Of a stretch of DNA of 19,562 nt, positions 8,113 to 19,562 are shown piece by piece. Each line of letters begins with the position of its first letter. The first letter of the stretch is position 1. The notes under the pieces are model-generated. The model was not told the origin of the DNA and did no database searches. It worked only from the letters and a program-made list of their open reading frames with translations. Made by a program: the position numbers and the translations under genes. The stretch comes from Acholeplasmataceae bacterium (GTDB lineage Bacteria > Bacillota_I > Bacilli_A > Acholeplasmatales > Acholeplasmataceae), in assembly GCA_023230825.1 (NCBI GenBank), contig JALNWO010000016.1, forward strand, positions 1 to 19,562. Direction: 5' to 3'.

Positions 8113-8188
8113 GCCGAAATAGCTCAGTTGGTAGAGCAGCTGTCTCGTAATCAGCAGGTCGCAGGTTCGAGTCCTGTTTTCAGCACCA
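8113..8188 (+). tRNA. tRNA-Thr (anticodon CGU)
   Basis: The 76 nt fold as a full cloverleaf with an encoded 3' CCA (8186-8188). There is a 7-bp acceptor stem, a GCTC/GAGC D stem, anticodon loop CTCGTAA giving anticodon CGT, a 5-nt variable loop and a GCAGG/CCTGT T stem with loop TTCGAGT. It reads ACG codons. G1-C72, C2-G71 and the GU at anticodon positions 35-36 fit threonine identity. Two non-pairs stand out: C3 opposite A70 in the acceptor stem and U31 opposite U39 closing the anticodon loop, plus a G-U pair at the end of the T stem. The gene lies 3 nt after the kinase stop, with no promoter of its own visible. Confidence 0.9.
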
Positions 8189-8318: not shown

Positions 8319-8337
8319 ATATTTGGAGGCGAATAAA

Positions 8338-9594
8338 GTGAGAATAAAAAGAGATAAATACTTAAATATGTTAATAGATGCCAAATGGAATGGGCTAATT
8401 AAAATTGTTACAGGAATTAGAAGATGTGGCAAATCGTACTTGTTAGGGGAGCTGTTTTATGAGCATTTAATAAATAGTGGCATTTGTTCTGACCATATTA
8501 TTAAAATAGCTCTTGATGATGAGGAAAATAAAGATTTAAGAGATGCTAGTGCGCTTTCTTTAGCTATAAATAAACAAACAAGCAATAAGGAAGTCAAATA
8601 TTATTTAATAATAGATGAAATTCAAAAATGTATTGGTTTTGAAGACGTCTTAAACGGAATCCTTTATAAAAAACATATTGATATTTATGTGACTGGAAGT
8701 AACTCTAAGTTTTTGTCTAAAGATGTAATTACTGAGTTTAGAGGACGAGGGCTTGAAATAAACCTTTTGCCATTATCTTTTTCAGAAATATTGCCATTAT
8801 ATGATAACCCAAGTAAAGCACTAGCTAATTATTTACTTTATGGTGGCATGCCTATTATGTTAACATTTAATGATGATCAAGGAAAAAGAAATTATTTATC
8901 TAACTTATTTAAAACCGTATATTTAAGTGATATAATCGAACGCTATAATATCGAGCATGCTGATGCCTTGGAGAGAATAATTGACTTACTGTCATCTTCA
9001 ATAGGTTCATTAACAAACCCAAACAAAATAACTAATACTCTAAGTAGTAAAGGGCAAAAGGGAATTGATTATAAAACTGTAAAAAATTATTTAGATTATA
9101 TTACTGATGCATATCTATTTGAAAAAGTGGATAGATATGATGTTAAAGGAAAAAAGTATTTTGAAACTATTAGTAAATACTACGCTACTGATTTAGGTTT
9201 AAGAAACGCAAGATTAAATTTTAGGCAATATGAAGAAAATCATTTAATGGAAAATGCTATATATTTAGAACTTTTAAATAGAGGATTTAGTGTTGATGTT
9301 GGAATAGTAGAAATAAGAGAAGTAGTTGAAGGCAAAAGAGTATCAAAACAATTAGAAATAGATTTCATTGCTAATAAATCTGATAAAAGATACTACATTC
9401 AATCTGCTTATCAAATGCCGACTGAAGAAAAACGAAATCAAGAAATAAGGCCATTTAGAGCAGTAGATGACTCTTTCAAAAAAATCTTAATTGTTAGAAA
9501 TGATTTTGCGCCTATTTTTAATGATGAAAATGGCATTTTACATATTGGCTTATTAGATTTTTTAAGTGACCCTAATAGTCTAAATAGAAGTTAA
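8338..9594 (+). CDS. AAA_14 / DUF4143 family ATP-binding protein
   Basis: This is a stand-alone AAA+ ATPase of the large family found in many copies in anaerobe and archaeal genomes; its cellular function is not established. Walker A is GIRRCGKS (26-33), Walker B is YYLIIDEIQ (88-96) with Asp93-Glu94, the sensor-like TGSNSK is at 119-124 and a likely arginine finger lies in EFRGRG (133-138). The C-terminal DUF4143 part ends in a PD-(D/E)XK-like segment. That segment keeps E-I-D-F, but has YIQSAY where active nucleases have E-x-K, so it is probably not a nuclease. Start GTG 8338 is 8 nt after GGAGG (8325-8329). The TTG at 8323 overlaps that site and is rejected. The result is 418 residues. Codon use (many ATA, AGA) is more AT-rich than in the neighbours, suggesting transfer. 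Confidence 0.88.
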   Translation: MRIKRDKYLNMLIDAKWNGLIKIVTGIRRCGKSYLLGELFYEHLINSGICSDHIIKIALDDEENKDLRDASALSLAINKQTSNKEVKYYLIIDEIQKCIGFEDVLNGILYKKHIDIYVTGSNSKFLSKDVITEFRGRGLEINLLPLSFSEILPLYDNPSKALANYLLYGGMPIMLTFNDDQGKRNYLSNLFKTVYLSDIIERYNIEHADALERIIDLLSSSIGSLTNPNKITNTLSSKGQKGIDYKTVKNYLDYITDAYLFEKVDRYDVKGKKYFETISKYYATDLGLRNARLNFRQYEENHLMENAIYLELLNRGFSVDVGIVEIREVVEGKRVSKQLEIDFIANKSDKRYYIQSAYQMPTEEKRNQEIRPFRAVDDSFKKILIVRNDFAPIFNDENGILHIGLLDFLSDPNSLNRS

Positions 9595-10267: not shown

Positions 10268-11701
10268 ATGAGAAAAATCTTCTTAACAACATTTTTAATT
10301 ATGTTATCATTTCTTTTATTTGCATGCATTGCCGATCCTGATAATAATAAAGATAACCCAGACCATACTTACGCAACCGTCCGCATGCTCTTTTTCTATC
10401 AAGAAAGCACAATCGATGATTGGAAAGACGATTATCATAAAAAGAAATCGTGGTCTTACGACGAACTAAAAAGTTATACATTTACTAATTCAGTCGTTAT
10501 TACATACAAAAACAAAGATAACCTAATTAAAGATTATCCGAAAATAGTTGAGAGCTTAAGCTACACATCAGAAATTTATCTTGAACTATATTCACTTGCA
10601 GAGGAAATTAAAGTATCAGATGTATTAACGAAAGAAGCATTGATAACGATTACGAGTAAATATGATCAAACAGAAATCTATTTTGACCCTCTTGAATACG
10701 AAGAACTCTATGTCTCCATGGATGAATCATACATCATTGGAACACTTGTTATCGATAGCAATGAACAACTTGCAACCCTTTATGAAGAACTTCCAATTAC
10801 CGTAGAGCCAAACTTCTTTGATACGAAAGCACTCATTATTATTGGCGGATACCGAAGTGGCAGCCTAATGGTTTATGGGGTTGACTCTGTCTTTTATTTA
10901 AATGAAACAACGCTTGAGGTTGCGATTAACGGGGAATTAGCCAGCAATGTCGCAACATCAGATGAAAGATATTACACCCTTATTTTAAGTGTTGATCAAA
11001 CGATTCTAAACCCAATTAATCGAGTAATTCAACATTTCCATATAACACATTTAGACGGGTTTAGAAGAGACGTTCCTTTTCATAACACTCTCAATCCATG
11101 GCCCAATCAAAACTATAAAGAAATGGGATTATATCTTCCTGGCCAACGGATTTATCTTCAAGGTGATGAACTCAATTTTTGGGATTTAGAAATCTATATT
11201 AAAACAGATGAAAATGAATTTCTTCATCCAGGAAAGTATTACTATAAAACACCTGTTGATACAAATAAAGTAGGAACCCACACCATCTATGTTTTATATA
11301 ACGGTTTTATGGTATCATTTACCATTGAAGTTCTTCCATATATTGAAGACGTTAAACTGCTTTATTCTAACAGACCAACAGTTGTTGATGAGACCATGAG
11401 TGATGGTTTCATCGAAGACTATGAAACCTATTTAGCTCTCAATGTTGATTTAGAGTTAGAAGCATCCTTTTTTGAAGATTCTGTTTTATACTTAAAACGA
11501 TTTGATAGTTCAAATACCAATCTCTTTCGCATTTTAACTCAAGCAGAAGTTTCTAATAATGAACTGATCCTTCATCTTCATAAACCACCCTATTTAGCTG
11601 GAGCGGCTATTACACCTGGACAACTCATCTTTTCTATTGCAAAAGAAGTGAGAAATCAAGTCGATGATGTAACCTTTGTTTTTACTAGAAGCCTAATCTA
11701 A
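10268..11701 (+). CDS. Surface lipoprotein with a bacterial Ig-like segment
   Basis: The protein begins MRKIFLTTFL, continues as a hydrophobic stretch and ends in the lipobox LFAC, so Cys20 should be lipidated after signal peptidase II cleavage. It would be anchored on the outer face of the membrane. AAGGAGGG at 10256-10263 precedes the ATG. Most of the 477 residues match nothing I recognise. Residues about 287-357 look like a bacterial Ig-like (Big_3 type) domain ending PVDTNKVGTHTIYVLYNG and a beta strand, as in many Firmicutes adhesins and cell-surface proteins. The mature part has no further cysteines and is mostly beta-strand-like. It is flanked by terminators on both sides, so it is a single-gene unit. 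It lies next to the c-di-GMP genes, but no riboswitch precedes it. Confidence 0.75.
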   Translation: MRKIFLTTFLIMLSFLLFACIADPDNNKDNPDHTYATVRMLFFYQESTIDDWKDDYHKKKSWSYDELKSYTFTNSVVITYKNKDNLIKDYPKIVESLSYTSEIYLELYSLAEEIKVSDVLTKEALITITSKYDQTEIYFDPLEYEELYVSMDESYIIGTLVIDSNEQLATLYEELPITVEPNFFDTKALIIIGGYRSGSLMVYGVDSVFYLNETTLEVAINGELASNVATSDERYYTLILSVDQTILNPINRVIQHFHITHLDGFRRDVPFHNTLNPWPNQNYKEMGLYLPGQRIYLQGDELNFWDLEIYIKTDENEFLHPGKYYYKTPVDTNKVGTHTIYVLYNGFMVSFTIEVLPYIEDVKLLYSNRPTVVDETMSDGFIEDYETYLALNVDLELEASFFEDSVLYLKRFDSSNTNLFRILTQAEVSNNELILHLHKPPYLAGAAITPGQLIFSIAKEVRNQVDDVTFVFTRSLI

Positions 11702-11841: not shown

Positions 11842-11870
11842 TTGGTATTTTTGCATTTAAAATATATAAT
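11842..11870 (+). promoter_or_regulatory. Promoter of the c-di-GMP signalling operon
   Basis: TTGGTA (11842-11847) and a perfect TATAAT (11865-11870) are separated by exactly 17 bp. Transcription would begin near 11877, just before the ribosome-site region. The TTG at 11842 that would open the longest reading frame is therefore the -35 box, not a start codon. Confidence 0.75.
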
Positions 11871-11901
11871 AGACTTAATCAAAGGAGAAGAAGGTGAGCT
11901 T

Positions 11902-14169
11902 TTGAGTAAATATACTATTCGTGAAATTATTGTCATGGGCATCTTTTTACTTGCGATTTTAGTCGTCGGTCTTTTAATCCTTAACAAACAAGATATTGAT
12001 GAAGTGAATCTATTGGTTTCTGCGAGCAACGAAGAAATCGTTGATCATATTTTTTATCAAGCAAACGCAAAGAAAACACTTCTTGAAGAAAACAGATTGA
12101 CCTTAACAACCTACGACCTCCCCTTTGATGCAGGCCTCTTTACTGATATTCAAGTAGGGATACCATCTGAGTATAACTTATCTATTCCTGATGAAGTGTT
12201 TGTAGTGATTTACTATGTCAATAACAAACTTTATTATGAGCCGATTATCCCTTACTTACAGATCCATGATCGTGATGAAAACCATTTTGCGATTGTAGAT
12301 GAAATCGGCACTGTTCTTCTCGCAAATAAACTTGCAGTCGGTTCTAAAATAGCTTCTTATGTAAAACAAGTAAGTATTTTTGATGATTTATTTCAAACAC
12401 ACGAACCTTTTTCTTTCTTAGATAACCGTGAATTTATTGCCTCAACACCGATTGTTGCTGGTGAATATTATTTCATTTACTTTACCGCACGAACCATTTA
12501 CTTTCCCAACAACTTTAAAACAGTCGTTACTCAAGGTTTAATTGTTTTAGCTTTCGTCATGATGTATGTTCTTATTGTTTTCATTAACAACATCAGTGAC
12601 GCCCGGATGCAGGCGAGCCTCAACCACATGATGATCCAAAACTTACCTCTTTTATATGTCGTTGAAGTTGATAAAAAAGGCAAAATCTTAAGTAAAAATA
12701 AACTTTTTGAGAATTTAGTTCACCGCGAAAACGTAAAAAATATCCATGAGCTTTTAGACGATGGTATTTTCATCGATGAACACCCAGAAATTTTAATTCA
12801 TATTCACGATGAAGATATGATCTTTACGCGTTACTCATATAAAAACCGTTATTTACTAATCGCTGAAAAAGTAACCGCAGTCATCAAAGACTACGAACAA
12901 GCTGTTTACTTTGATGCAGATACTAAGCTCGCGAACAAGGCATCGTTTATTAAATATATGGAAGAGCTGGATCGTCATACAGCGATGACGATTTTAGTCT
13001 TCGATATTAAAGAGTTCCGTAAGATTCGTAACTTATATGGTCTAAACTATGTTAATCAACTCGTTATGTTTATTGCCGGCTATTTCGAACATATTTTAGA
13101 TGTGGGTCTTTCGCGTGTATTTTTAATTAAAGACGATACTTTCGCGATTGTTTCCCAACGCGAATATAAAATTAATACACGCGCATGGATTTTTGAAACC
13201 ATTCAAAAACTCAATGAATTACTTGCAGAAAACAAATATTTAACGATTTCTTTTAGTGTTGCGATTTCTCCCGTTACCCCAGAAATTCTTGAAAATCCAG
13301 AAACCATTCCGCTTTATTTAATGACAGCACTAGACCAAGCTAAAGAAAACGAAGAAAACGATGTTGCCTTTTATGATGAAGACTTACGAACATTCTTAAA
13401 CGAAAGAGAAAAAATTATTAGTGATATTGAAAAAGGCATTAAACAAAATGAATTTGAAATTTACTTACAGCCCACGGTCGACTTAAAGTCAAAAGCAATC
13501 ACATCATATGAAGCTTTGATGCGGTGGAATAACCCAGCGTACTTTTATATTTCTCCAGAAAAATACTTTTCTCTTGCAGAAGAGACAAAACTCATATATG
13601 ATTTAACAAGTATCACTGTGAATCAAACAGCGAAACTCATTAGTGAACTTGATAATCCAAAAGCTGTGATTTCTTTTAACGCATCTCCCATGCAATTGTT
13701 AGAACAAGGCTTCATCCATAAAATCACCCAAGCTGTTAAGAAAGAAAAAATTAACCTTGACCAGCTTGCGGTTGAAATTACAGAAACCTCGTTTAGTAAA
13801 TCATTTAGTAAAGTCATTGAAAAGATTAATGCGATAAAGAAATTAGGTCTTAAAATTTATATCGATGACTTTGGAACAGGCTACAGTTCCTTAAAATATT
13901 TAAGTGACTTAGACTTAGACGTCTTAAAGATTGATAAATCGTTCGTTGAAAAGATGGTCGAAGATAATCGCGTCGAAGCGATTGTCAAAACAATTATTCA
14001 TCTTGCCCATAACTTAAAACTAAAAGTCATCGCCGAAGGGGTTGAAACGAAAGCCCAGTTGGCACTACTACAAAAACTAAATTGTGATCACATTCAAGGT
14101 TACTTAGTCTCTAAAGCAATTCCGAGTCAAGAAGCCGTTAAGCTTTTCCACCGAAAAGTTAACATTTAA
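11902..14169 (+). CDS. Membrane c-di-GMP phosphodiesterase (degenerate GGDEF + intact EAL)
   Basis: This protein should hydrolyse c-di-GMP to pGpG. Transmembrane helices lie at about 6-27 and 207-229, enclosing an extracellular sensor region of about 180 residues. A PAS-like or linker segment (about 245-330) follows, then GGDEF (about 335-490) and EAL (about 505-750). The GGDEF signature is replaced by LIKDDTF (408-414), so cyclase activity is unlikely. The EAL domain is intact: EALMRW (537-542), FNASP (592-596), EITE (625-628), DDFGTG (655-660), K677 in LKID, AEGVE (711-715) and QGY (732-734). Start TTG 11902 follows AAGGTGAG (11891-11898) and gives 755 residues; AAAGGAG at 11881 is a more distant second ribosome site. 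The stop is 12 nt from the next gene. Confidence 0.88.
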   Translation: MSKYTIREIIVMGIFLLAILVVGLLILNKQDIDEVNLLVSASNEEIVDHIFYQANAKKTLLEENRLTLTTYDLPFDAGLFTDIQVGIPSEYNLSIPDEVFVVIYYVNNKLYYEPIIPYLQIHDRDENHFAIVDEIGTVLLANKLAVGSKIASYVKQVSIFDDLFQTHEPFSFLDNREFIASTPIVAGEYYFIYFTARTIYFPNNFKTVVTQGLIVLAFVMMYVLIVFINNISDARMQASLNHMMIQNLPLLYVVEVDKKGKILSKNKLFENLVHRENVKNIHELLDDGIFIDEHPEILIHIHDEDMIFTRYSYKNRYLLIAEKVTAVIKDYEQAVYFDADTKLANKASFIKYMEELDRHTAMTILVFDIKEFRKIRNLYGLNYVNQLVMFIAGYFEHILDVGLSRVFLIKDDTFAIVSQREYKINTRAWIFETIQKLNELLAENKYLTISFSVAISPVTPEILENPETIPLYLMTALDQAKENEENDVAFYDEDLRTFLNEREKIISDIEKGIKQNEFEIYLQPTVDLKSKAITSYEALMRWNNPAYFYISPEKYFSLAEETKLIYDLTSITVNQTAKLISELDNPKAVISFNASPMQLLEQGFIHKITQAVKKEKINLDQLAVEITETSFSKSFSKVIEKINAIKKLGLKIYIDDFGTGYSSLKYLSDLDLDVLKIDKSFVEKMVEDNRVEAIVKTIIHLAHNLKLKVIAEGVETKAQLALLQKLNCDHIQGYLVSKAIPSQEAVKLFHRKVNI

Positions 14170-14181
14170 AGGAGGACCCTA

Positions 14182-15564
14182 ATGGAAACTTTTATTGTCA
14201 TTCTCTTAATCTTAGCAATGCTCGCCGCCATTTATGGTTTTTTCAAACTGATTAAATTTGAAAGCGTCCGCTTTCGCGAAGACCAACTCTTGGCCAGTGG
14301 TGAAGTGATTGACTATCCTTTATTTAAAAAGTTTATTACAAGAAAAATTAAAGAAGGCGAAACCAAAGGTGTCTTCTCTTTAGTCTTAGTGACAATCGGC
14401 CATTTTGACCAATTGGTTGATACATACGGGATTGTTGATGCAAAACTCATTTTAAAACAAACAAAAGATTTAGTTAGAGGGGTTTTACCAACAATGTCAA
14501 TTGTCGCTAATAGTAGTGAACTGGGTTCCATCCTTATATATTTACCGAAACTGTATCATGACAATGAAATGAAGGCACTGGCTCGATCAATGAAACGAGC
14601 GGCTGAAACTAAAATTAAAGTCTTTGAAGAAATCTTTGTTCAAAATAATGCTATTATTACGTATGTCACCTATCCTTTAAATGGAAAAACCTTTGATTCC
14701 TTATTCGCGAACTTAAACTTAGGTATTTATTTAGGTCAAAAATCAGGTGGCGAAACCATCATTAGTTACTCCAACGAGATGCAAAAAGACAAAGCCTTTA
14801 TTGATTTCTATTATGAAATTAAAGAAGCGATTCGAAAAAAAGAGTTTGTCTTGTTTTATCATCCGATTATCGATGCGAAACGAAAAGAGATTTACGGATT
14901 TGAATCACTCATTCGTTGGAACCACCCCAAACAAGGATTATTATTACCAAAAGATTTTTTAGCGAAAGTCCAAAGTTCTGGTGATTTAGACTGGATCGGA
15001 TTTTGGAGTTTAGATAGTATCGTACGCTTTAGCTATAAAGCTTACAAAGAAGCTGAAAAGATTCCTTATCGTTGGCATTTAAATATTAGTCATCAACAAC
15101 TTCTTAATAATGAGATCGTCAATGAGTTTCAAGAAACGATTAACCGCTACCGGATTGATCCAGAGTTAATTACGTTAGAAATTGTTGACTTCGCTAAAGT
15201 GGTCAATCATCAAAATGCGATTAAAACATTAATTAAGCTCTCTAATATTGGTTTTAAAATTGCAGTATCGATACATGAAACCGATTATCAGCTTTTGGCT
15301 GATATTGAAAAATATGAAATCGATATTATTAAACTCAGCACAAACATTTTAAAACGAATGGATCAAACAGTAAATAAGAATTTCGTTGAAACGATTTATG
15401 AACTACAAAGAAAAGGAAAAGCCGTTGTGATCGTTGAAAACATCGAATCTGATGAAGACAGTGAACTTGCACTAAACAGTAAGTTTAACTTACAACAAGG
15501 CTACTATTTTTCAGAACCATTTTCTGAATCAAAGTTAAACGAATTTGTTCAAAAGTTTTATTAA
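14182..15564 (+). CDS. Membrane protein with degenerate GGDEF and EAL domains
   Basis: One N-terminal helix (about 3-24) is followed directly by a GGDEF-like fold (about 40-200) and an EAL-like fold (about 205-458). Where GGDEF should be, the sequence reads SSELG (111-115). In the EAL part several landmarks survive: FESLIRWNHP (240-249), NIS (301-303), VEN (418-420) and QGY (439-441). The metal-binding DDFGTG is replaced by SIHETD (363-368), E-I-T-E has become E-I-V-D, and K-I-D-K has become K-L-S-T. It is therefore very unlikely to be an active phosphodiesterase or cyclase. Such dead relatives often bind c-di-GMP or a protein partner and act as receptors or regulators. AAAGGAGG precedes the ATG, and the gene is in an operon with the active enzyme upstream. 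Confidence 0.85.
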   Translation: METFIVILLILAMLAAIYGFFKLIKFESVRFREDQLLASGEVIDYPLFKKFITRKIKEGETKGVFSLVLVTIGHFDQLVDTYGIVDAKLILKQTKDLVRGVLPTMSIVANSSELGSILIYLPKLYHDNEMKALARSMKRAAETKIKVFEEIFVQNNAIITYVTYPLNGKTFDSLFANLNLGIYLGQKSGGETIISYSNEMQKDKAFIDFYYEIKEAIRKKEFVLFYHPIIDAKRKEIYGFESLIRWNHPKQGLLLPKDFLAKVQSSGDLDWIGFWSLDSIVRFSYKAYKEAEKIPYRWHLNISHQQLLNNEIVNEFQETINRYRIDPELITLEIVDFAKVVNHQNAIKTLIKLSNIGFKIAVSIHETDYQLLADIEKYEIDIIKLSTNILKRMDQTVNKNFVETIYELQRKGKAVVIVENIESDEDSELALNSKFNLQQGYYFSEPFSESKLNEFVQKFY

Positions 15565-15576
15565 AGATAAAATCTG

Positions 15577-15605
15577 TTGACAAAAAAAAAGAAGTATGAT
15601 ATTTT
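15577..15605 (+). promoter_or_regulatory. Promoter upstream of riboswitch 1
   Basis: A perfect -35 TTGACA (15577-15582) is followed by an A-run and an AT-rich -10 region. The best -10 candidates are TATTTT at 15600 (17-bp spacing) or GATATT at 15598 (15-bp). The same arrangement, TTGACA then GTATGATA, precedes riboswitch 2. No terminator separates this promoter from the signalling operon, so read-through into the riboswitch is possible. Confidence 0.6.
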
Positions 15606-15623
15606 TAAGATACATTCGCAAGA

Positions 15624-15698
15624 TATGTAAAAGGCAAAGCTAGGGGAACCTAGTGACGCAAAGCTATAGGGTCCATTAAAAGGATAGCCAGTTGTCAT
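15624..15698 (+). promoter_or_regulatory. c-di-GMP-I (GEMM-I) riboswitch aptamer, copy 1
   Basis: The conserved GEMM-I core is present: GGCAAA (15633-15638), a P2 hairpin CTAGG-GGAA-CCTAG with a GNRA tetraloop, the invariant GACGCAAAGC (15654-15663), then a P3 arm from TATAGGGTCC to GGATAGCC. The base just before CAAA is G (15634). It corresponds to G20 in the well-studied Vc2 aptamer, which favours c-di-GMP over cGAMP. The 3' end of the aptamer is also the 5' arm of a terminator, so ligand binding should prevent termination (ON switch). The genes downstream are the surface-protein operon. The 75-nt block is identical to copy 2. Confidence 0.93.
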
Positions 15699-15719
15699 AG
15701 TATTTGACACTGGCTTTTT
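15686..15719 (+). terminator. Riboswitch 1 expression-platform terminator
   Basis: AGCCAGTTGTCA (15686-15697) pairs with TGACACTGGCT (15705-15715) with one bulged T, followed by TTTTT. The 5' arm overlaps the aptamer's P3/P1 3' strands, so the two folds exclude each other. It lies 26 nt upstream of the next start codon. Confidence 0.88.
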
Positions 15720-15745
15720 GATTTCTTTTTAAAGGAGGTGGACGC

Positions 15746-16453
15746 ATGAATCCAGTGATGACATATCGAAGAACGAGAAGAAGAACGAATCAACTAATCT
15801 TACTCATCTTGTTATTACTCGCCATGATTTCAGCAGCCATCATCTTCCTAACGTTTTACGGACTGAATACCGGTAACTTCATTATCGGGATTGAACAAGA
15901 TGCTTATAATAAAAACATTTCGATTGCGGAAACACCGGATGCGACCGACAATCAAAAAACGTTGTTTATCCAAACGATGCCAATTTATCCTTTCGATTTC
16001 GCTATTATTCATGCCAATTTAGATCAATTTACAGAAGTCGATGGGGTTGTTGAAGAGTTTAAACGAAACTCAGTCGCTGTAACCTTTTATATTAAAAACG
16101 AATTATCAAACCTTTCTTATGATTTAAACTACTATATTAACTTAAAAGAAGTACGCCACGATAGTAACGAACTGCAAAACGTAAAAATCTTAATGGTCGT
16201 TGATGGTGAGAAAAGACTGTATCATCAAGAAGAGCATAACCTTGTCAATTATGGTAGTGATTACATCGTCACCAACTTTAGAGAAGGAAGCCGGATTGTA
16301 ACAGGTAAAATAAATGAACTTGAAGCCGGTGGTGTCAAAAAGATAACAATCATCTTATGGTATGAAGGTCGTCAAATCGATGAAGAAGATGTCTTGGAAG
16401 CTTTAAAACTTCAAGTTGTCTTTGAGATTGATGAACCAGGTGAAGGCGTATGA
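15746..16453 (+). CDS. Membrane-anchored surface protein, first gene of riboswitch 1 operon
   Basis: The protein has 235 residues, with an Arg-rich N terminus (YRRTRRRTNQ, 7-16), one strong hydrophobic helix (about 17-40) and an extracellular beta-rich region. No SipW-type A-W cleavage motif follows the helix, so it probably stays in the membrane as an anchor. The C terminus, ILWYEGRQIDEEDVLEALKL, is a variant of the W-x-E-G-W-D signature of the two following surface proteins, ending like them in a hydrophobic strand with Phe226. This suggests the same beta-sandwich fold and an accessory role, perhaps like TapA in Bacillus fibres, though no TapA similarity is visible. AAAGGAGGTG (15731-15740) is a very strong ribosome site. 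The stop overlaps the next start (ATGA). Confidence 0.7.
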   Translation: MNPVMTYRRTRRRTNQLILLILLLLAMISAAIIFLTFYGLNTGNFIIGIEQDAYNKNISIAETPDATDNQKTLFIQTMPIYPFDFAIIHANLDQFTEVDGVVEEFKRNSVAVTFYIKNELSNLSYDLNYYINLKEVRHDSNELQNVKILMVVDGEKRLYHQEEHNLVNYGSDYIVTNFREGSRIVTGKINELEAGGVKKITIILWYEGRQIDEEDVLEALKLQVVFEIDEPGEGV

Positions 16454-17373
16454 CAAAGTTAAAGTGGTTAATGGTCGCACTCCTCGCAACCCTTACAACC
16501 TTATTTACAAGCGTCTTTGCATGGCTTCAAGTGAGTAACATTAACATCTTAGAAGATTTATCGTTAGAAGTTGGTGTCGGTGATACTTTAGAAATCTCAT
16601 TAGACGGGATTAACTTCGGTAAATCAATTGATAAAGCAATGACTCATGAGTTATTAAAAAATTTAGTGTTTACTGATATTACAACAAATGATAACATCAA
16701 CTTTTATAAAGGTCCTAACTTAAAAGGGAAAGTCGCTGAAAGAAATGTGGATTACATTGGTTTAGATATTTGGTTTCGAGTGGCTTTAGAACCAGGTGTT
16801 CCTGAAGAAGATGTTTTTAAAGAAATTTATTTAGTCAATCATTTAGATATCACCTATCAAGATGCCAAGTCATCTCCATCAAGAGGAACGTATATTACAT
16901 CAGAAGGACGCATGTGGCAAGCAGACTTTACGTTTGATAACGGGCATCAGATCGTTGAAAAAGGAAAGATTGCCAAGTATTATGCTAAAGACGCGATGCG
17001 TATCGGCGTCACAAGTCTTCATAACACGTTCATTTATGATACGAGTGAAAATGAAGAAAGAGGGTTTGGAAGAGAGTACGGTGCTTTTGAATATTACAAT
17101 ATGAAGACGACCCAGAAGAACTTAGAACTTCCTGACGTCTACCCAGAAACGATTTATCAACTGTCCAGAGAATATCCCAATACAGGGATTATGGATGGCA
17201 CAAGATCTTTAGTTGTCATCTTAGAAAAAGCAGGCGATTACTGGCAAGGCAAAGCCACCATTAATATATGGATTGAAGGTTGGGATGCCGATGCATTTGA
17301 TGCCATCTTAAAGGATCATATCTTAATTCAACTTGAATTCCAAGCTGCTTGGCACTTAGATAATGAAGGATAA
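16450..17373 (+). CDS. TasA/camelysin-like secreted surface protein
   Basis: The N-terminal signal segment (about 1-24) ends in SVFAWLQ, like the A-W junction of SipW-processed proteins such as TasA and camelysin; cleavage is expected near Ala24. The mature 280 residues are beta-rich and cysteine-free. The C terminus has IWIEGWDADAFDAIL (273-287) followed by a strand ending LEFQ, the same signature as the protein at 17694. Its start overlaps the upstream stop (ATGA), so the two are translationally coupled and share riboswitch 1. I infer an extracellular fibre or surface-layer subunit. A plain secreted protein that needs SipW but forms no fibre cannot be excluded. No terminator is visible before riboswitch 2. 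Confidence 0.72.
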   Translation: MTKLKWLMVALLATLTTLFTSVFAWLQVSNINILEDLSLEVGVGDTLEISLDGINFGKSIDKAMTHELLKNLVFTDITTNDNINFYKGPNLKGKVAERNVDYIGLDIWFRVALEPGVPEEDVFKEIYLVNHLDITYQDAKSSPSRGTYITSEGRMWQADFTFDNGHQIVEKGKIAKYYAKDAMRIGVTSLHNTFIYDTSENEERGFGREYGAFEYYNMKTTQKNLELPDVYPETIYQLSREYPNTGIMDGTRSLVVILEKAGDYWQGKATINIWIEGWDADAFDAILKDHILIQLEFQAAWHLDNEG

Positions 17374-17449
17374 TAAATAAAAATAAAGCCTTCATAAAGC
17401 CAAGAACAGTACAAAATGCATAAAAAATGCAAAAATGAGTTTAATTTTG

Positions 17450-17478
17450 TTGACAAATATAAAAAAGTATGATAATTT
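17450..17478 (+). promoter_or_regulatory. Promoter upstream of riboswitch 2
   Basis: TTGACA (17450-17455) is followed by an AT-rich -10 region, with TAATTT at 17473 (17-bp spacing) or GATAAT at 17471 (15-bp). It shares the TTGACA ... AAAAAAGTATGATA pattern with the promoter of riboswitch 1. The preceding 17374-17449 holds no gene or terminator that I can see. Confidence 0.6.
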
Positions 17479-17498
17479 TATAGTACATCGTGAATAAC

Positions 17499-17573
17499 TA
17501 TGTAAAAGGCAAAGCTAGGGGAACCTAGTGACGCAAAGCTATAGGGTCCATTAAAAGGATAGCCAGTTGTCAT
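17499..17573 (+). promoter_or_regulatory. c-di-GMP-I (GEMM-I) riboswitch aptamer, copy 2
   Basis: All 75 bases are identical to copy 1 (15624-15698), including the variable P3 loop ATTAAAA. The key G before CAAA is at 17509. It controls the gene at 17694. The remainder of the interval 17374-17693 holds the promoter, the terminator arm and an AT-rich leader with a strong ribosome site. Confidence 0.93.
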
Positions 17574-17595
17574 TCCATTTGACATCTGGCTTTTT
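17561..17595 (+). terminator. Riboswitch 2 expression-platform terminator
   Basis: AGCCAGTTGTCA (17561-17572) pairs with TGACATCTGGCT (17580-17591) with one T-T mismatch, followed by TTTTT. The 5' arm is shared with the aptamer as in copy 1. The 3' arm and loop differ from copy 1, yet the pairing is kept. Confidence 0.88.
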
Positions 17596-17693
17596 GTTTT
17601 CTTAAATAAAAAAGAAGAAAACACTGAAATTAGGTTAAGATAGCGAAAGCTAATTAAAAAAAATATATATATTATATAAGGAGAGAATAGAAA

Positions 17694-18671
17694 ATGAGAA
17701 ACTTTTCAAAAAAGATTATTACTTCAGTCTTAACATTAGTACTTACAGTGGTCGCATTGGGTACGGGAGTGTTTGCTTGGTTTTCAATGAATACTAAAAC
17801 CGAGGCAACTGGCTTGAATGGTTCTGCAGAGGCAGCTACAGGTGGTTTTTATATCTCAATGACTGGCGCTAAAGGAAGTTGGGGAAACGTAGTTGAATTA
17901 AATACACTTCCAAATAAAGGTTTTAGAGTCCTTAATGATGTATTTACAGATTTAACATCAACAGATGGCATCATTATTAATAAAATTGATTTTGAACACT
18001 CAGATAATGCTATGATTGGTGGAGGAGCAAGTGCTGCTTCTGGTTACATGGAATTTCCTCTTTACTTTTTGACAGGCAATGATTATTTTCATGTTTATCT
18101 AACAAAACTTGAATTTGTTTCCCAAGGACTAACATCATGGAGTGCTGAAAAAGATGTAGACAACGGTGCAGGTCGTGTAGTAACTGTAGGTGACCTAATG
18201 GAATCTGATATTATTAATGCAATTAGAGTTTCTTTCCAAGAAGTTGGCTGGGCAGAACAAAATGCACCTACAAATGATGCTTCCACCGCATTTATTTTTG
18301 AACAAGAGGCGAGCGGTGATAACATGGGTGCTAATCCAAAATTATTTGGAAATACAACAGGATTTGGAGGAATTGGAACTAACTTTGCATTATTATATTA
18401 TAACGCAGTTAATCCAGGAACATTGTTAACTCTTCCCAACGCTAGAGGCGATATCGTAGTTGGAAATGATGGCGTTGTAAGTCAAAAATTACTTGAAACA
18501 ACAGCTTTAGGTGATGCTTCAGAAGTTGCCGATGGTTTGGATGAAACATTTACTCACGGTGGTAAAGTTATGGTTCGTGTTTGGCTAGAAGGCTGGGACC
18601 AAGAAGCATTTAACGCATTATTCGGTGGCGAAGTAACTATTAATATGACATTTGAAGTTGATAATCAATAA
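17694..18671 (+). CDS. TasA-like secreted surface protein, probable major subunit
   Basis: The signal segment (about 1-28) ends GTGVFAWFSMN (23-33), a textbook SipW-type processing region with cleavage expected after Ala28. The mature part is about 297 residues, rich in Gly, Ala, Asn and Thr, without cysteine, and beta-strand-rich. The C terminus has WLEGWDQEAFNALF (297-310) and a last strand TINMTFEV, the signature shared with the protein at 16450. AAGGAGAG (17678-17685) lies 8 nt before the ATG. It has its own promoter and c-di-GMP riboswitch, and the following hairpin separates it from the peptidase gene, so it may be the most abundant product of the locus. The partial gene at the window end is a close paralogue. 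Fibre formation is inferred from TasA and not shown here. Confidence 0.78.
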   Translation: MRNFSKKIITSVLTLVLTVVALGTGVFAWFSMNTKTEATGLNGSAEAATGGFYISMTGAKGSWGNVVELNTLPNKGFRVLNDVFTDLTSTDGIIINKIDFEHSDNAMIGGGASAASGYMEFPLYFLTGNDYFHVYLTKLEFVSQGLTSWSAEKDVDNGAGRVVTVGDLMESDIINAIRVSFQEVGWAEQNAPTNDASTAFIFEQEASGDNMGANPKLFGNTTGFGGIGTNFALLYYNAVNPGTLLTLPNARGDIVVGNDGVVSQKLLETTALGDASEVADGLDETFTHGGKVMVRVWLEGWDQEAFNALFGGEVTINMTFEVDNQ

Positions 18672-18695
18672 TTGATTATAGAGCTAGTTATTTTT

Positions 18696-18715
18696 AAGGG
18701 GGCCTTTGCCCCCTT
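18696..18715 (+). other. GC-rich hairpin without U-run between subunit and peptidase genes
   Basis: AAGGGGGC (18696-18703) pairs perfectly with GCCCCCTT (18708-18715) around the loop CTTT. No T run follows, so full termination is unlikely. It may protect the upstream mRNA end or partly stop transcription, letting the subunit exceed the peptidase. Confidence 0.7.
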
Positions 18716-18742
18716 GGCTCATTGCCAGGTTAAGGAGATAAA

Positions 18743-19438
18743 GTGGAAATAATGGAAAAAAACAAAAAAACATCTATGAAAGTCTTAAGTATCATCGGTA
18801 ATGTCGTTTTCTATGTTCTGATTGCTGTTTTATTACTGTTTTCAATTAGTAATATTTCTAGTAAAAGAGAAGATGATATTCCAGCAGTCTTTAGCCGTGG
18901 ATTTGTCAATGTCTTGTCAAGCTCCATGGATGGTAATGAAACAAACTATCGGGTCAATTCGTTTAAAAAAGATGCCTTAATTTTTGTAAAGATCTTAAAC
19001 GACGAAAGTAAAGCACAACTTCAAGTGGGTGATGTTGTTGTCTTTTGGGGTCAGTTGAGCCCAACAGATCCGACTGTTAAAGCCTTTGTAATTCACCGGA
19101 TCATCGAGATTGATGGTAACCAAATTACAACACAAGGGGATAACCCCATTACAAATGCAACCATCACTGAAACTCACGACTTAAGAGCCATTAAGGCTGT
19201 TGCTACTAGCAAAGTTGAAGGTATCGGTGGTGCCATTGGTTATTTACAAAGTCCTACAGGCTTTTTAATCTTTGTTGTTGTACCTTTGATCTTATTAGTT
19301 GTCTTTGAGACAGTGATTTTGATTCGATTTATTTTACAAAGAAACAAAGTGAAATTAGAAGCAGAATATGCATTAGAAAAAGAAAGACTCAAAGCTGAGT
19401 TAATGGAAGAAATTAAGAAGCGGGAAAAAGAAGAATGA
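18743..19438 (+). CDS. sipW: SipW-type (ER-type, S26B) signal peptidase I
   Basis: This is a dedicated membrane peptidase that removes signal peptides of TasA/camelysin-type proteins. Helices lie at about 15-37 and 173-195. The catalytic serine is in LSSSMDG (Ser61) and the base is histidine in VIHR (His118), the Ser-His dyad of the ER/archaeal type rather than Ser-Lys. GDVVVFWG (96-103) and QGDNP (131-135) are the conserved companion motifs. Residues 196-231 form a highly charged, coiled-coil-like cytoplasmic tail rich in Glu and Lys. GTG 18743 lies 5 nt after AAGGAG (18732-18737) and is preferred to ATG 18752, which is 14 nt away. The stop overlaps the next start (ATGA). Its neighbours are its likely substrates. 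Confidence 0.9.
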   Translation: MEIMEKNKKTSMKVLSIIGNVVFYVLIAVLLLFSISNISSKREDDIPAVFSRGFVNVLSSSMDGNETNYRVNSFKKDALIFVKILNDESKAQLQVGDVVVFWGQLSPTDPTVKAFVIHRIIEIDGNQITTQGDNPITNATITETHDLRAIKAVATSKVEGIGGAIGYLQSPTGFLIFVVVPLILLVVFETVILIRFILQRNKVKLEAEYALEKERLKAELMEEIKKREKEE

Positions 19439-19562
19439 AAACAAGCCAAAGAGCTATCAAGTTAATCGTTACACTGACATTAACCCTTGTCGCTCTTGGT
19501 ACAGGCGTCCTTGCGTGGTTCTCAATGAACACAAGAGCAATCGCTTCTGGATTAGAAGGGTA
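19435..19562 (+). CDS. TasA-like secreted surface protein (partial, cut by window end)
   Basis: The 42 visible codons give a signal segment with VALGTGVLAWFSMNTRAIAS, close to the N terminus of the protein at 17694 (VALGTGVFAWFSMNTKTEAT), with cleavage expected after Ala27. It starts inside the sipW stop (ATGA), so it is translationally coupled to the peptidase. It is a further probable SipW substrate; its length and C terminus are outside the window. Confidence 0.8.
   Translation, partial: MKTSQRAIKLIVTLTLTLVALGTGVLAWFSMNTRAIASGLEG

What the first reader, a model, noticed from the sequence alone, without database searches (positions are those of the whole stretch)
15577..19562. c-di-GMP-gated, SipW-processed surface-fibre locus
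Two c-di-GMP-I riboswitches stand in front of operons encoding a membrane anchor-like protein, at least three TasA/camelysin-like secreted proteins and their own SipW-type peptidase. In Bacillus the tapA-sipW-tasA operon is known to be under SinR control, not a c-di-GMP riboswitch. Here the second messenger would gate matrix subunits directly at the RNA level. The riboswitches, the peptidase motifs and the A-W signal junctions are seen in the sequence. Fibre formation is inferred. In a possibly wall-less lineage the anchoring mode would also be new.
Basis: partly seen in the sequence, partly recalled or inferred. Interest (0 to 1): 0.85.

Follow-up and report, generated by a model that had tools for sequence, protein, structure and literature searches.

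The report
c-di-GMP-switched surface-fibre gene cluster
A bacterium from a group without cell walls appears to switch on a set of TasA-like surface-fibre genes, with their own processing enzyme, through RNA switches that sense the signal molecule cyclic di-GMP, and many relatives carry the same arrangement.

Summary
Two c-di-GMP-I aptamers (61.5 and 60.4 bits, cut-off 35) lie at 15623-15699 and 17498-17574. Each runs into a terminator whose 5' arm uses aptamer bases, so c-di-GMP should switch the genes ON. They precede a membrane-anchored protein A, secreted proteins B, C and C' (cut by the window end) and a Ser-His SipW-type peptidase. B and C are one family. C's best PDB match is the TasA fibre (E 6e-4, but TM only 0.23-0.30), B's match is weaker, and neither is a camelysin by Pfam. 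Fibre assembly is inferred.

The larger result is comparative. The cluster recurs across Acholeplasmatales with arrays of one to four riboswitches. Of 88 aptamers in the window and 59 related loci, all lie on the operon strand and precede A, an A-W-type secreted protein or SipW. A likely c-di-GMP phosphodiesterase and a degenerate EAL protein often sit upstream. In relatives the operon goes on with a membrane AAA+ protein nearest McrB, a DUF2357 protein and a second SipW. Eight of eight relatives lack transpeptidase and sortase. Parts are known; I found no report of the combination. Verdict: real, a new variant.

The parts
11842..14169 (+). EAL1: GGDEF-EAL protein, GGDEF motif lost, EAL catalytic motifs (EALMRW, DDFGTG) kept: likely c-di-GMP phosphodiesterase
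   Evidence: Pfam EAL E 2.1e-68, GGDEF 1.5e-8; survey: DDFGxG in 29 of 32 distal EAL proteins, GGDEF in 0 of 32, the AEGVE-type motif in only 17 of 32 by my pattern
14182..15564 (+). EAL2: degenerate GGDEF plus degenerate EAL (ESLIRW, no DDFG): likely c-di-GMP-binding or regulatory partner, not an enzyme
   Evidence: Pfam EAL E 1e-41; DDFGxG in 0 of 33 proximal proteins
15577..15605 (+). promoter-like P1: TTGACA-17-TATTTT
   Evidence: consensus match only
15623..15699 (+). c-di-GMP-I riboswitch aptamer 1
   Evidence: RF01051 61.5 bits; model R1, which was built with it, 90.0 bits
15686..15720 (+). intrinsic terminator 1; its 5' arm (AGCCAG...) is the 3' strand of the aptamer
   Evidence: coordinates indices
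15746..16453 (+). protein A, 235 aa: apparently uncleaved membrane-anchored member, C-terminal part homologous to B
   Evidence: alignment A4; hhalign A vs B 95.5%, E 1.4e-8 over 94 columns
16450..17373 (+). protein B, 307 aa, secreted TasA-like candidate, VFA|WLQ junction; start overlaps stop of A (ATGA)
17450..17478 (+). promoter-like P2: TTGACA-17-TAATTT
   Evidence: sequence, script score 9 of 12; not listed
17498..17574 (+). c-di-GMP-I riboswitch aptamer 2 (2 of 77 differences from aptamer 1)
   Evidence: RF01051 60.4 bits
17561..17596 (+). intrinsic terminator 2 overlapping aptamer 2
17694..18671 (+). protein C, 325 aa, secreted TasA-like candidate, VFA|WFS junction
18743..19438 (+). SipW-type signal peptidase, Ser61 and His118
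   Evidence: NF046067 45.5 bits and TIGR02228 45.7 bits, both below cut-off; Ser/His invariant in 13 of 13 aligned; profile hits SEC11A E 4e-14; the single sequence finds nothing in the PDB
19435..19562 (+). C': third secreted subunit, truncated by the window end (ATGA overlap with SipW)
   Evidence: 42 of 42 residues identical to the 305-aa P0004, itself a relative of C

Best explanation
This is the front part of a surface-fibre cluster that recurs in Acholeplasmatales and is switched on by c-di-GMP at the RNA level. At low c-di-GMP each leader folds into a terminator and transcription stops before A-B and before C-SipW-C'. When c-di-GMP binds, the aptamer keeps its 3' strand, the terminator cannot form and the operons are read. 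A stays in the membrane by its uncleaved N-terminal helix and serves as base or initiator. B, C and C' are exported, cut at A|W by the co-encoded Ser-His SipW peptidase, and polymerise by passing the freed N-terminal strand into the next subunit, as in TasA. The EAL protein pair just upstream lowers or senses c-di-GMP near the locus. Shown: aptamers, terminator overlap, gene content, homology of A, B and C, Ser-His motif, conservation. Inferred: ligand response, cleavage, donor-strand polymerisation, role of A, and local feedback.
For: Rfam matches. In 32 aligned aptamers 99.0% of pair cells are paired and 62 cells change on both sides, with 0 of 500 shuffles reaching either (related sequences can beat shuffles without structure, as the tool warns). 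A terminator overlapping the aptamer tail scores >=6 in 76 of 88 aptamers versus 123 of 1520 random positions. All 88 R1 hits in the window plus 59 loci (986 kb; one hit, in L031, is cut by the contig end) lie on the strand of the operon. By script the next gene is A in 52, A-W-type secreted in 33; of the other 3 one is a SipW and two (L012, L028) are A genes whose start was called too early (read). In 88 genomes of one family 39 of 40 genomes with B have RF01051 against 7 of 48 without B (overlap counted by me). Fold: C best hit is the TasA fibre, the only PDB chain with E <= 1e-3; VIA rows for B and C are headed mostly by TasA and donor-strand pilins. B-C hhalign 100%, E 6e-44. Ser/His invariant 13 of 13. 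An intact GG[DE]E[FY] in 24 of 30 GGDEF loci fetched, of 89 matches in 6 relatives. Precedents: Bc2 ON switch for an adhesin (PMC4933901, passages); TasA donor-strand assembly (PMC9674648, passages).
Confidence: 0.7

Rival explanations
1. The regulation is as described but the proteins do not polymerise: B, C and C' are monomeric or shed beta-sandwich surface adhesins or a surface coat, with A as a membrane-bound relative.
For: Fold matches are weak or local; camelysin-like CalY can act as a surface adhesin as well as a fibre (PMC13082335 passages); no sequence profile links them to TasA.
Against: C's best PDB match is the TasA fibre form; several homologous subunits plus a dedicated SipW in one operon is the pattern of polymerising systems; many other top structural rows are donor-strand pilins.
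Confidence: 0.22
2. The switch works the other way or at another level: c-di-GMP turns the genes OFF or acts on translation or mRNA stability.
For: Some c-di-GMP-I switches elsewhere are OFF switches (recalled); no response was measured here.
Against: The terminator 5' arm is built from aptamer bases, so both cannot form together; 76 of 88 aptamers have such a hairpin at score >=6, random positions 123 of 1520; Bc2 works as ON with an antiterminator (PMC4933901 passages).
Confidence: 0.05
3. The aptamers bind c-AMP-GMP rather than c-di-GMP.
For: The same RNA fold includes c-AMP-GMP binders, told apart by one base (PMC9481103 passages).
Against: The GG of AAAAGGCAAA, which by recalled Vc2 numbering holds the discriminating base, is G in all 32 aligned aptamers; six relatives carry diguanylate-cyclase-type GGDEF loci.
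Confidence: 0.03

Closest known systems
Bacillus subtilis tapA-sipW-tasA fibre operon
   Same: Co-encoded SipW-type peptidase, secreted beta-sandwich subunits with an A-aromatic junction, a minor partner encoded first (A in the place of TapA), TasA fibre among the best structural matches.
   Different: Three or more A-W-type subunits, A keeps its membrane helix, no sequence family membership, c-di-GMP riboswitch leaders, no sortase or transpeptidase in 8 of 8 relatives, added AAA+ and DUF2357 genes in relatives.
Bacillus thuringiensis Bc2 riboswitch - collagen adhesion protein; Bc3-5 triple-tandem riboswitch (PMC4933901 passages, PMC4759541 abstract)
   Same: c-di-GMP-I ON switch by terminator/antiterminator and a surface-adhesin target for Bc2; tandem complete riboswitches for Bc3-5.
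   Different: Targets here are TasA-like candidates and a SipW; up to four riboswitches in a row (L021). The 2022 review passage lists 347 doublets and 12 triplets of c-di-GMP-I (PMC9481103); a 2025 survey finds c-di-GMP riboswitches prone to tandem arrangement (PMC12452182 passages).
Clostridium perfringens sipW-bsaA operon (PMC7395162)
   Same: SipW-dependent polymerising secreted protein outside Bacillus (passages).
   Different: Controlled by the BsaRS two-component system and temperature; the one 'riboswitch' and one 'c-di-GMP' in the text are in reference titles.
McrBC-type AAA+ and DUF2357 pairs
   Same: Locus protein D of relatives: best PDB profile hit is McrB (E 0.0017), AAA_5 just below Pfam's cut-off (19.5 against 22). 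E: DUF2357 in 5 of 7 members. That DUF2357 is typical of McrC-like proteins is recalled.
   Different: D has an N-terminal membrane segment (seen by eye) and lies in a surface-fibre operon; no nuclease domain was found in E by Pfam. Neither lies in the window.

Membership tests
c-di-GMP-I riboswitch (RF01051) | score above the family's gathering threshold with the conserved fold | tested here: met
   61.5 and 60.4 bits against 35; covariation in 32 aptamers
c-di-GMP-I riboswitch (RF01051) | binds c-di-GMP and changes gene expression | not testable with these tools
   needs in-line probing and transcription assays
TasA/camelysin (Pfam PF12389) | profile score above gathering cut-off | tested here: not met
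   C 14.6 bits against 22.5, B no hit; P0004, whose start equals C', no hit
TasA-like fold | jelly-roll/Ig-like sandwich matching TasA by structure | tested here: inconclusive
TasA-type fibre | polymerisation by N-terminal donor strand | not testable with these tools
   inferred from junction and fold only
SipW-type (ER-type) signal peptidase | Ser-His catalytic pair instead of Ser-Lys | tested here: met
   S61 and H118 invariant in 13 of 13 aligned proteins picked by hand; profile aligns with SEC11A
SipW equivalog NF046067 / TIGR02228 | score above curated cut-off | tested here: not met
   window protein 45.5 against 190 and 45.7 against 51.85; relative L021 SipW1 passes TIGR02228 with 58.1
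Wall-less Acholeplasmatales lineage | no peptidoglycan transpeptidase or sortase | tested here: inconclusive
   PF00905 and PF04203 in 0 of 8 relatives while 10 and 3 of 14 controls ring; the window's own genome is not held
EAL phosphodiesterase (EAL1) | EAL and DDFG metal-site motifs | tested here: met
   window protein has EALMRW, DDFG and the AEGVE-type motif; among 32 distal proteins DDFGxG in 29, AEGVE-type in 17 by my pattern; activity untested

The most novel reading that the evidence does not exclude
The full cluster is a new kind of surface-fibre machine for wall-less bacteria: c-di-GMP-gated TasA-like subunits on an uncleaved membrane base (A), processed by two SipW-type peptidases, with assembly or release powered from the cytoplasmic side by a membrane McrB-like AAA+ protein (D) and, in the riboswitch-controlled version only, its DUF2357 partner (E), and with a giant surface protein as cargo or tip.
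Probability: 0.25. Interest if true: 0.88.

Novelty: new variant of a known kind. Interest (0 to 1): 0.72.

Why it matters
The TasA-type fibres I know of are from walled Firmicutes; how a wall-less bacterium would build and anchor one is open. Here the second messenger appears to gate the subunits directly at the RNA level, in repeated arrays that should give a sharp on/off response, in named species (Acholeplasma granularum L013, Acholeplasma oculi L003, Peloplasma aerotolerans L008, Paracholeplasma vituli L050). That makes c-di-GMP signalling in this group, with 5 to 20 GGDEF matches in each of six relatives, directly testable, and supplies a clear target set for it.

Tried and rejected
Chance or artefact: rejected by Rfam scores, covariation and conservation.

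Camelysin/TasA membership by sequence: looked for with Pfam, NCBIfam and PDB sequence profiles; not found above cut-off. A short N-terminal scan against NCBIfam also gave only chance hits. The peptidase sequence alone finds nothing in the PDB; its profile does.

Promoter and terminator scan on the window alone: promoters no better than shuffles, and the two riboswitch terminators are not listed, probably because of a bulge or internal loop; folds were used instead. My ungapped terminator script scores window terminator 1 only 5 for the same reason.

Array sizes: the script printed 19 single, 9 double, 3 triple, 1 quadruple; it missed one aptamer each in L012 and L028, whose A start was called inside it. 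Counting gives 18, 9, 4, 1 (32 loci), which I use.

c-di-GMP-II riboswitches: none in 8 relatives, but nothing rang in controls either, so this shows nothing. Plasmid search: no match. A pattern search written too strictly found nothing in the one genome tried.

Papers: no paper holds both 'c-di-GMP riboswitch' and 'camelysin', 'GEMM riboswitch' and 'Acholeplasma', or all of 'Acholeplasma', 'c-di-GMP', 'riboswitch'. Broader searches listed 20 of 44, 36, 36 and 38 papers and 15 of 15; no listing reports this. Of the 11 papers with 'Acholeplasma' and 'riboswitch' I read passages of three; none concerns this. Subscription journals are mostly not held.

Drift caution: the iterated family profiles merge B and C, and small A-W proteins score low; 'A-W-type secreted' is a loose label (profile score over 15 or a motif in the first 55 residues). 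The motif check looked anywhere in long frames of each locus, not only in the matched domain. VIA lists are dominated by beta-sandwiches, so presence or absence there is weak evidence.

Full report
What is in the window. Two c-di-GMP-I aptamers, both on +, score 61.5 and 60.4 bits against a gathering score of 35 and differ at 2 of 77 bases. Promoter-like sites of the same type lie at 15577-15605 and 17450-17478. Each aptamer runs into a hairpin with a U-run; the hairpin's 5' arm AGCCAGUUGUCA is the 3' strand of the aptamer. Transcript 1 would carry A and B, which overlap by ATGA; transcript 2 would carry C, a signal peptidase and C', whose start also overlaps the peptidase stop. C' is cut by the window end; its 42 visible residues equal the start of a 305-aa relative of C.

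Conservation. A scan with the B alignment gave 59 loci, all mapped. A covariance model from 32 aptamers, the window's two included, found 88 aptamers in the window plus those loci, all on the operon strand, one of them cut by a contig end. By script the gene that follows is A in 52 and A-W-type secreted in 33; of 3 others one precedes a SipW and two are A genes whose start was placed too early (read). Separately, of the 30 riboswitch loci fetched from genomes (partly the same sites), 15 precede A, 12 a B-like or other A-W/A-Y-W/A-F-W-type secreted protein, one (L078) nothing related, and two run off the contig (sorted by me). Of 49 A genes with at least 450 nt visible upstream, 32 have riboswitches: 18 single, 9 double, 4 triple, 1 quadruple (see Tried and rejected for the recount). 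Terminators overlapping the aptamer score >=6 in 76 of 88 against 123 of 1520 random positions, so most units look like complete switches. At genome level 40 of 41 genomes searched by handle carry RF01051. In the 88 held genomes of one family B is in 40 and RF01051 in 46; the overlap is 39, with 7 of 48 B-negative genomes positive (two B matches, G053 and G090, are weak or broken). Many negatives are 0.3-0.9 Mb genomes, so this association is partly phylogeny. B-type matches occur in 80 of 160 genomes of the order and 84 of 395 of the class, many of the extra ones short and weak.

The wider locus. In relatives the usual order is EAL1-EAL2-[riboswitch 1-4]-A-B-C-SipW1-D-E-(small A-W)-SipW2-[riboswitch]-small A-W proteins-giant protein, with variation. 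A shorter paralogous version, often adjacent, lacks riboswitch and E. Riboswitch and E go together without exception in the 39 A loci with enough flank on both sides (25 with both, 14 with neither). D has Walker A GISGTGKT in 48 of 48, a membrane segment by eye, and is nearest to McrB in the PDB (E 0.0017). E has DUF2357 in 5 of 7. The window ends before D.

The signal. An EAL protein lies within 900 nt upstream of 33 of the 49 A genes with at least 1500 nt visible. Distal EAL proteins keep DDFGxG in 29 of 32 and show GGDEF in none; my pattern for the AEGVE-type motif finds it in 17 of 32. Proximal ones show DDFGxG in 0 of 33. So a probable phosphodiesterase and a probable c-di-GMP-binding partner sit at the head of many of these loci. 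Six relatives hold 5 to 20 GGDEF matches each, 89 in all; of 30 loci fetched from among them, 24 show an intact motif. Eight of eight relatives lack transpeptidase and sortase while 10 and 3 of 14 controls ring, which fits a wall-less cell that cannot use wall anchoring.

Reading. c-di-GMP-gated, SipW-processed, TasA-like surface fibres on a membrane-anchored base is the best explanation (0.70 for the whole; the presence of the riboswitches is near certain). ON polarity follows from shared bases and from the Bc2 precedent (PMC4933901, passages). In B. subtilis TapA is thought to give the first donor strand (PMC9674648 passages; PMC10151520 abstract); A sits in the same operon position but stays in the membrane, so it may start the fibre and hold it. 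That is inference. Novelty: each part is of a known kind; the combination, its breadth in Acholeplasmatales, the quadruple array and the D/E genes were not found in the papers searched.

Noticed in passing
L021:12869-14410 and L021:14420-16279 (also L001, L003, L008 and others): A membrane AAA+ protein nearest McrB and a DUF2357-type protein with a long charged coiled coil (by eye) sit inside the fibre operon of relatives; PADLOC PDC-M26A matches the AAA+ protein in 4 of 4 tested (E 1e-38 to 1e-42) and the partner in 0 of 4. Their role in a surface operon is unexplained.
   Followed up: partly
L002/L021, L029/L035, L014/L008 and other pairs: Two paralogous versions of the locus often lie next to each other; only the one with riboswitches has the DUF2357-type gene (25 with both, 14 with neither).
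   Followed up: partly
L065, L067, L069, L070, L073, L076, L083, L087, L089: Away from the main locus, c-di-GMP-I riboswitches precede small (~190 aa) secreted proteins with an A-Y-W junction (..AYWQDV.. or ..AYWNDV..), a second riboswitch-linked set.
   Followed up: partly
L021:8773-9224: Four c-di-GMP-I riboswitches in a row before one operon, each with its own overlapping hairpin; the 2022 survey passage lists doublets and triplets only.
   Followed up: partly
L021:1690-8661 and equivalents: A giant protein of about 2300 aa without any Pfam hit closes the cluster in many relatives.
   Followed up: no
window 8323-9594: AAA_14 plus DUF4143 ATPase downstream of a tRNA gene at 8113-8185.
   Followed up: no
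window 10268-11701: Putative lipoprotein (by eye) with a weak bacterial Ig-like domain just upstream of the EAL pair (Big_3, 20.4 bits against cut-off 21.2).
   Followed up: no
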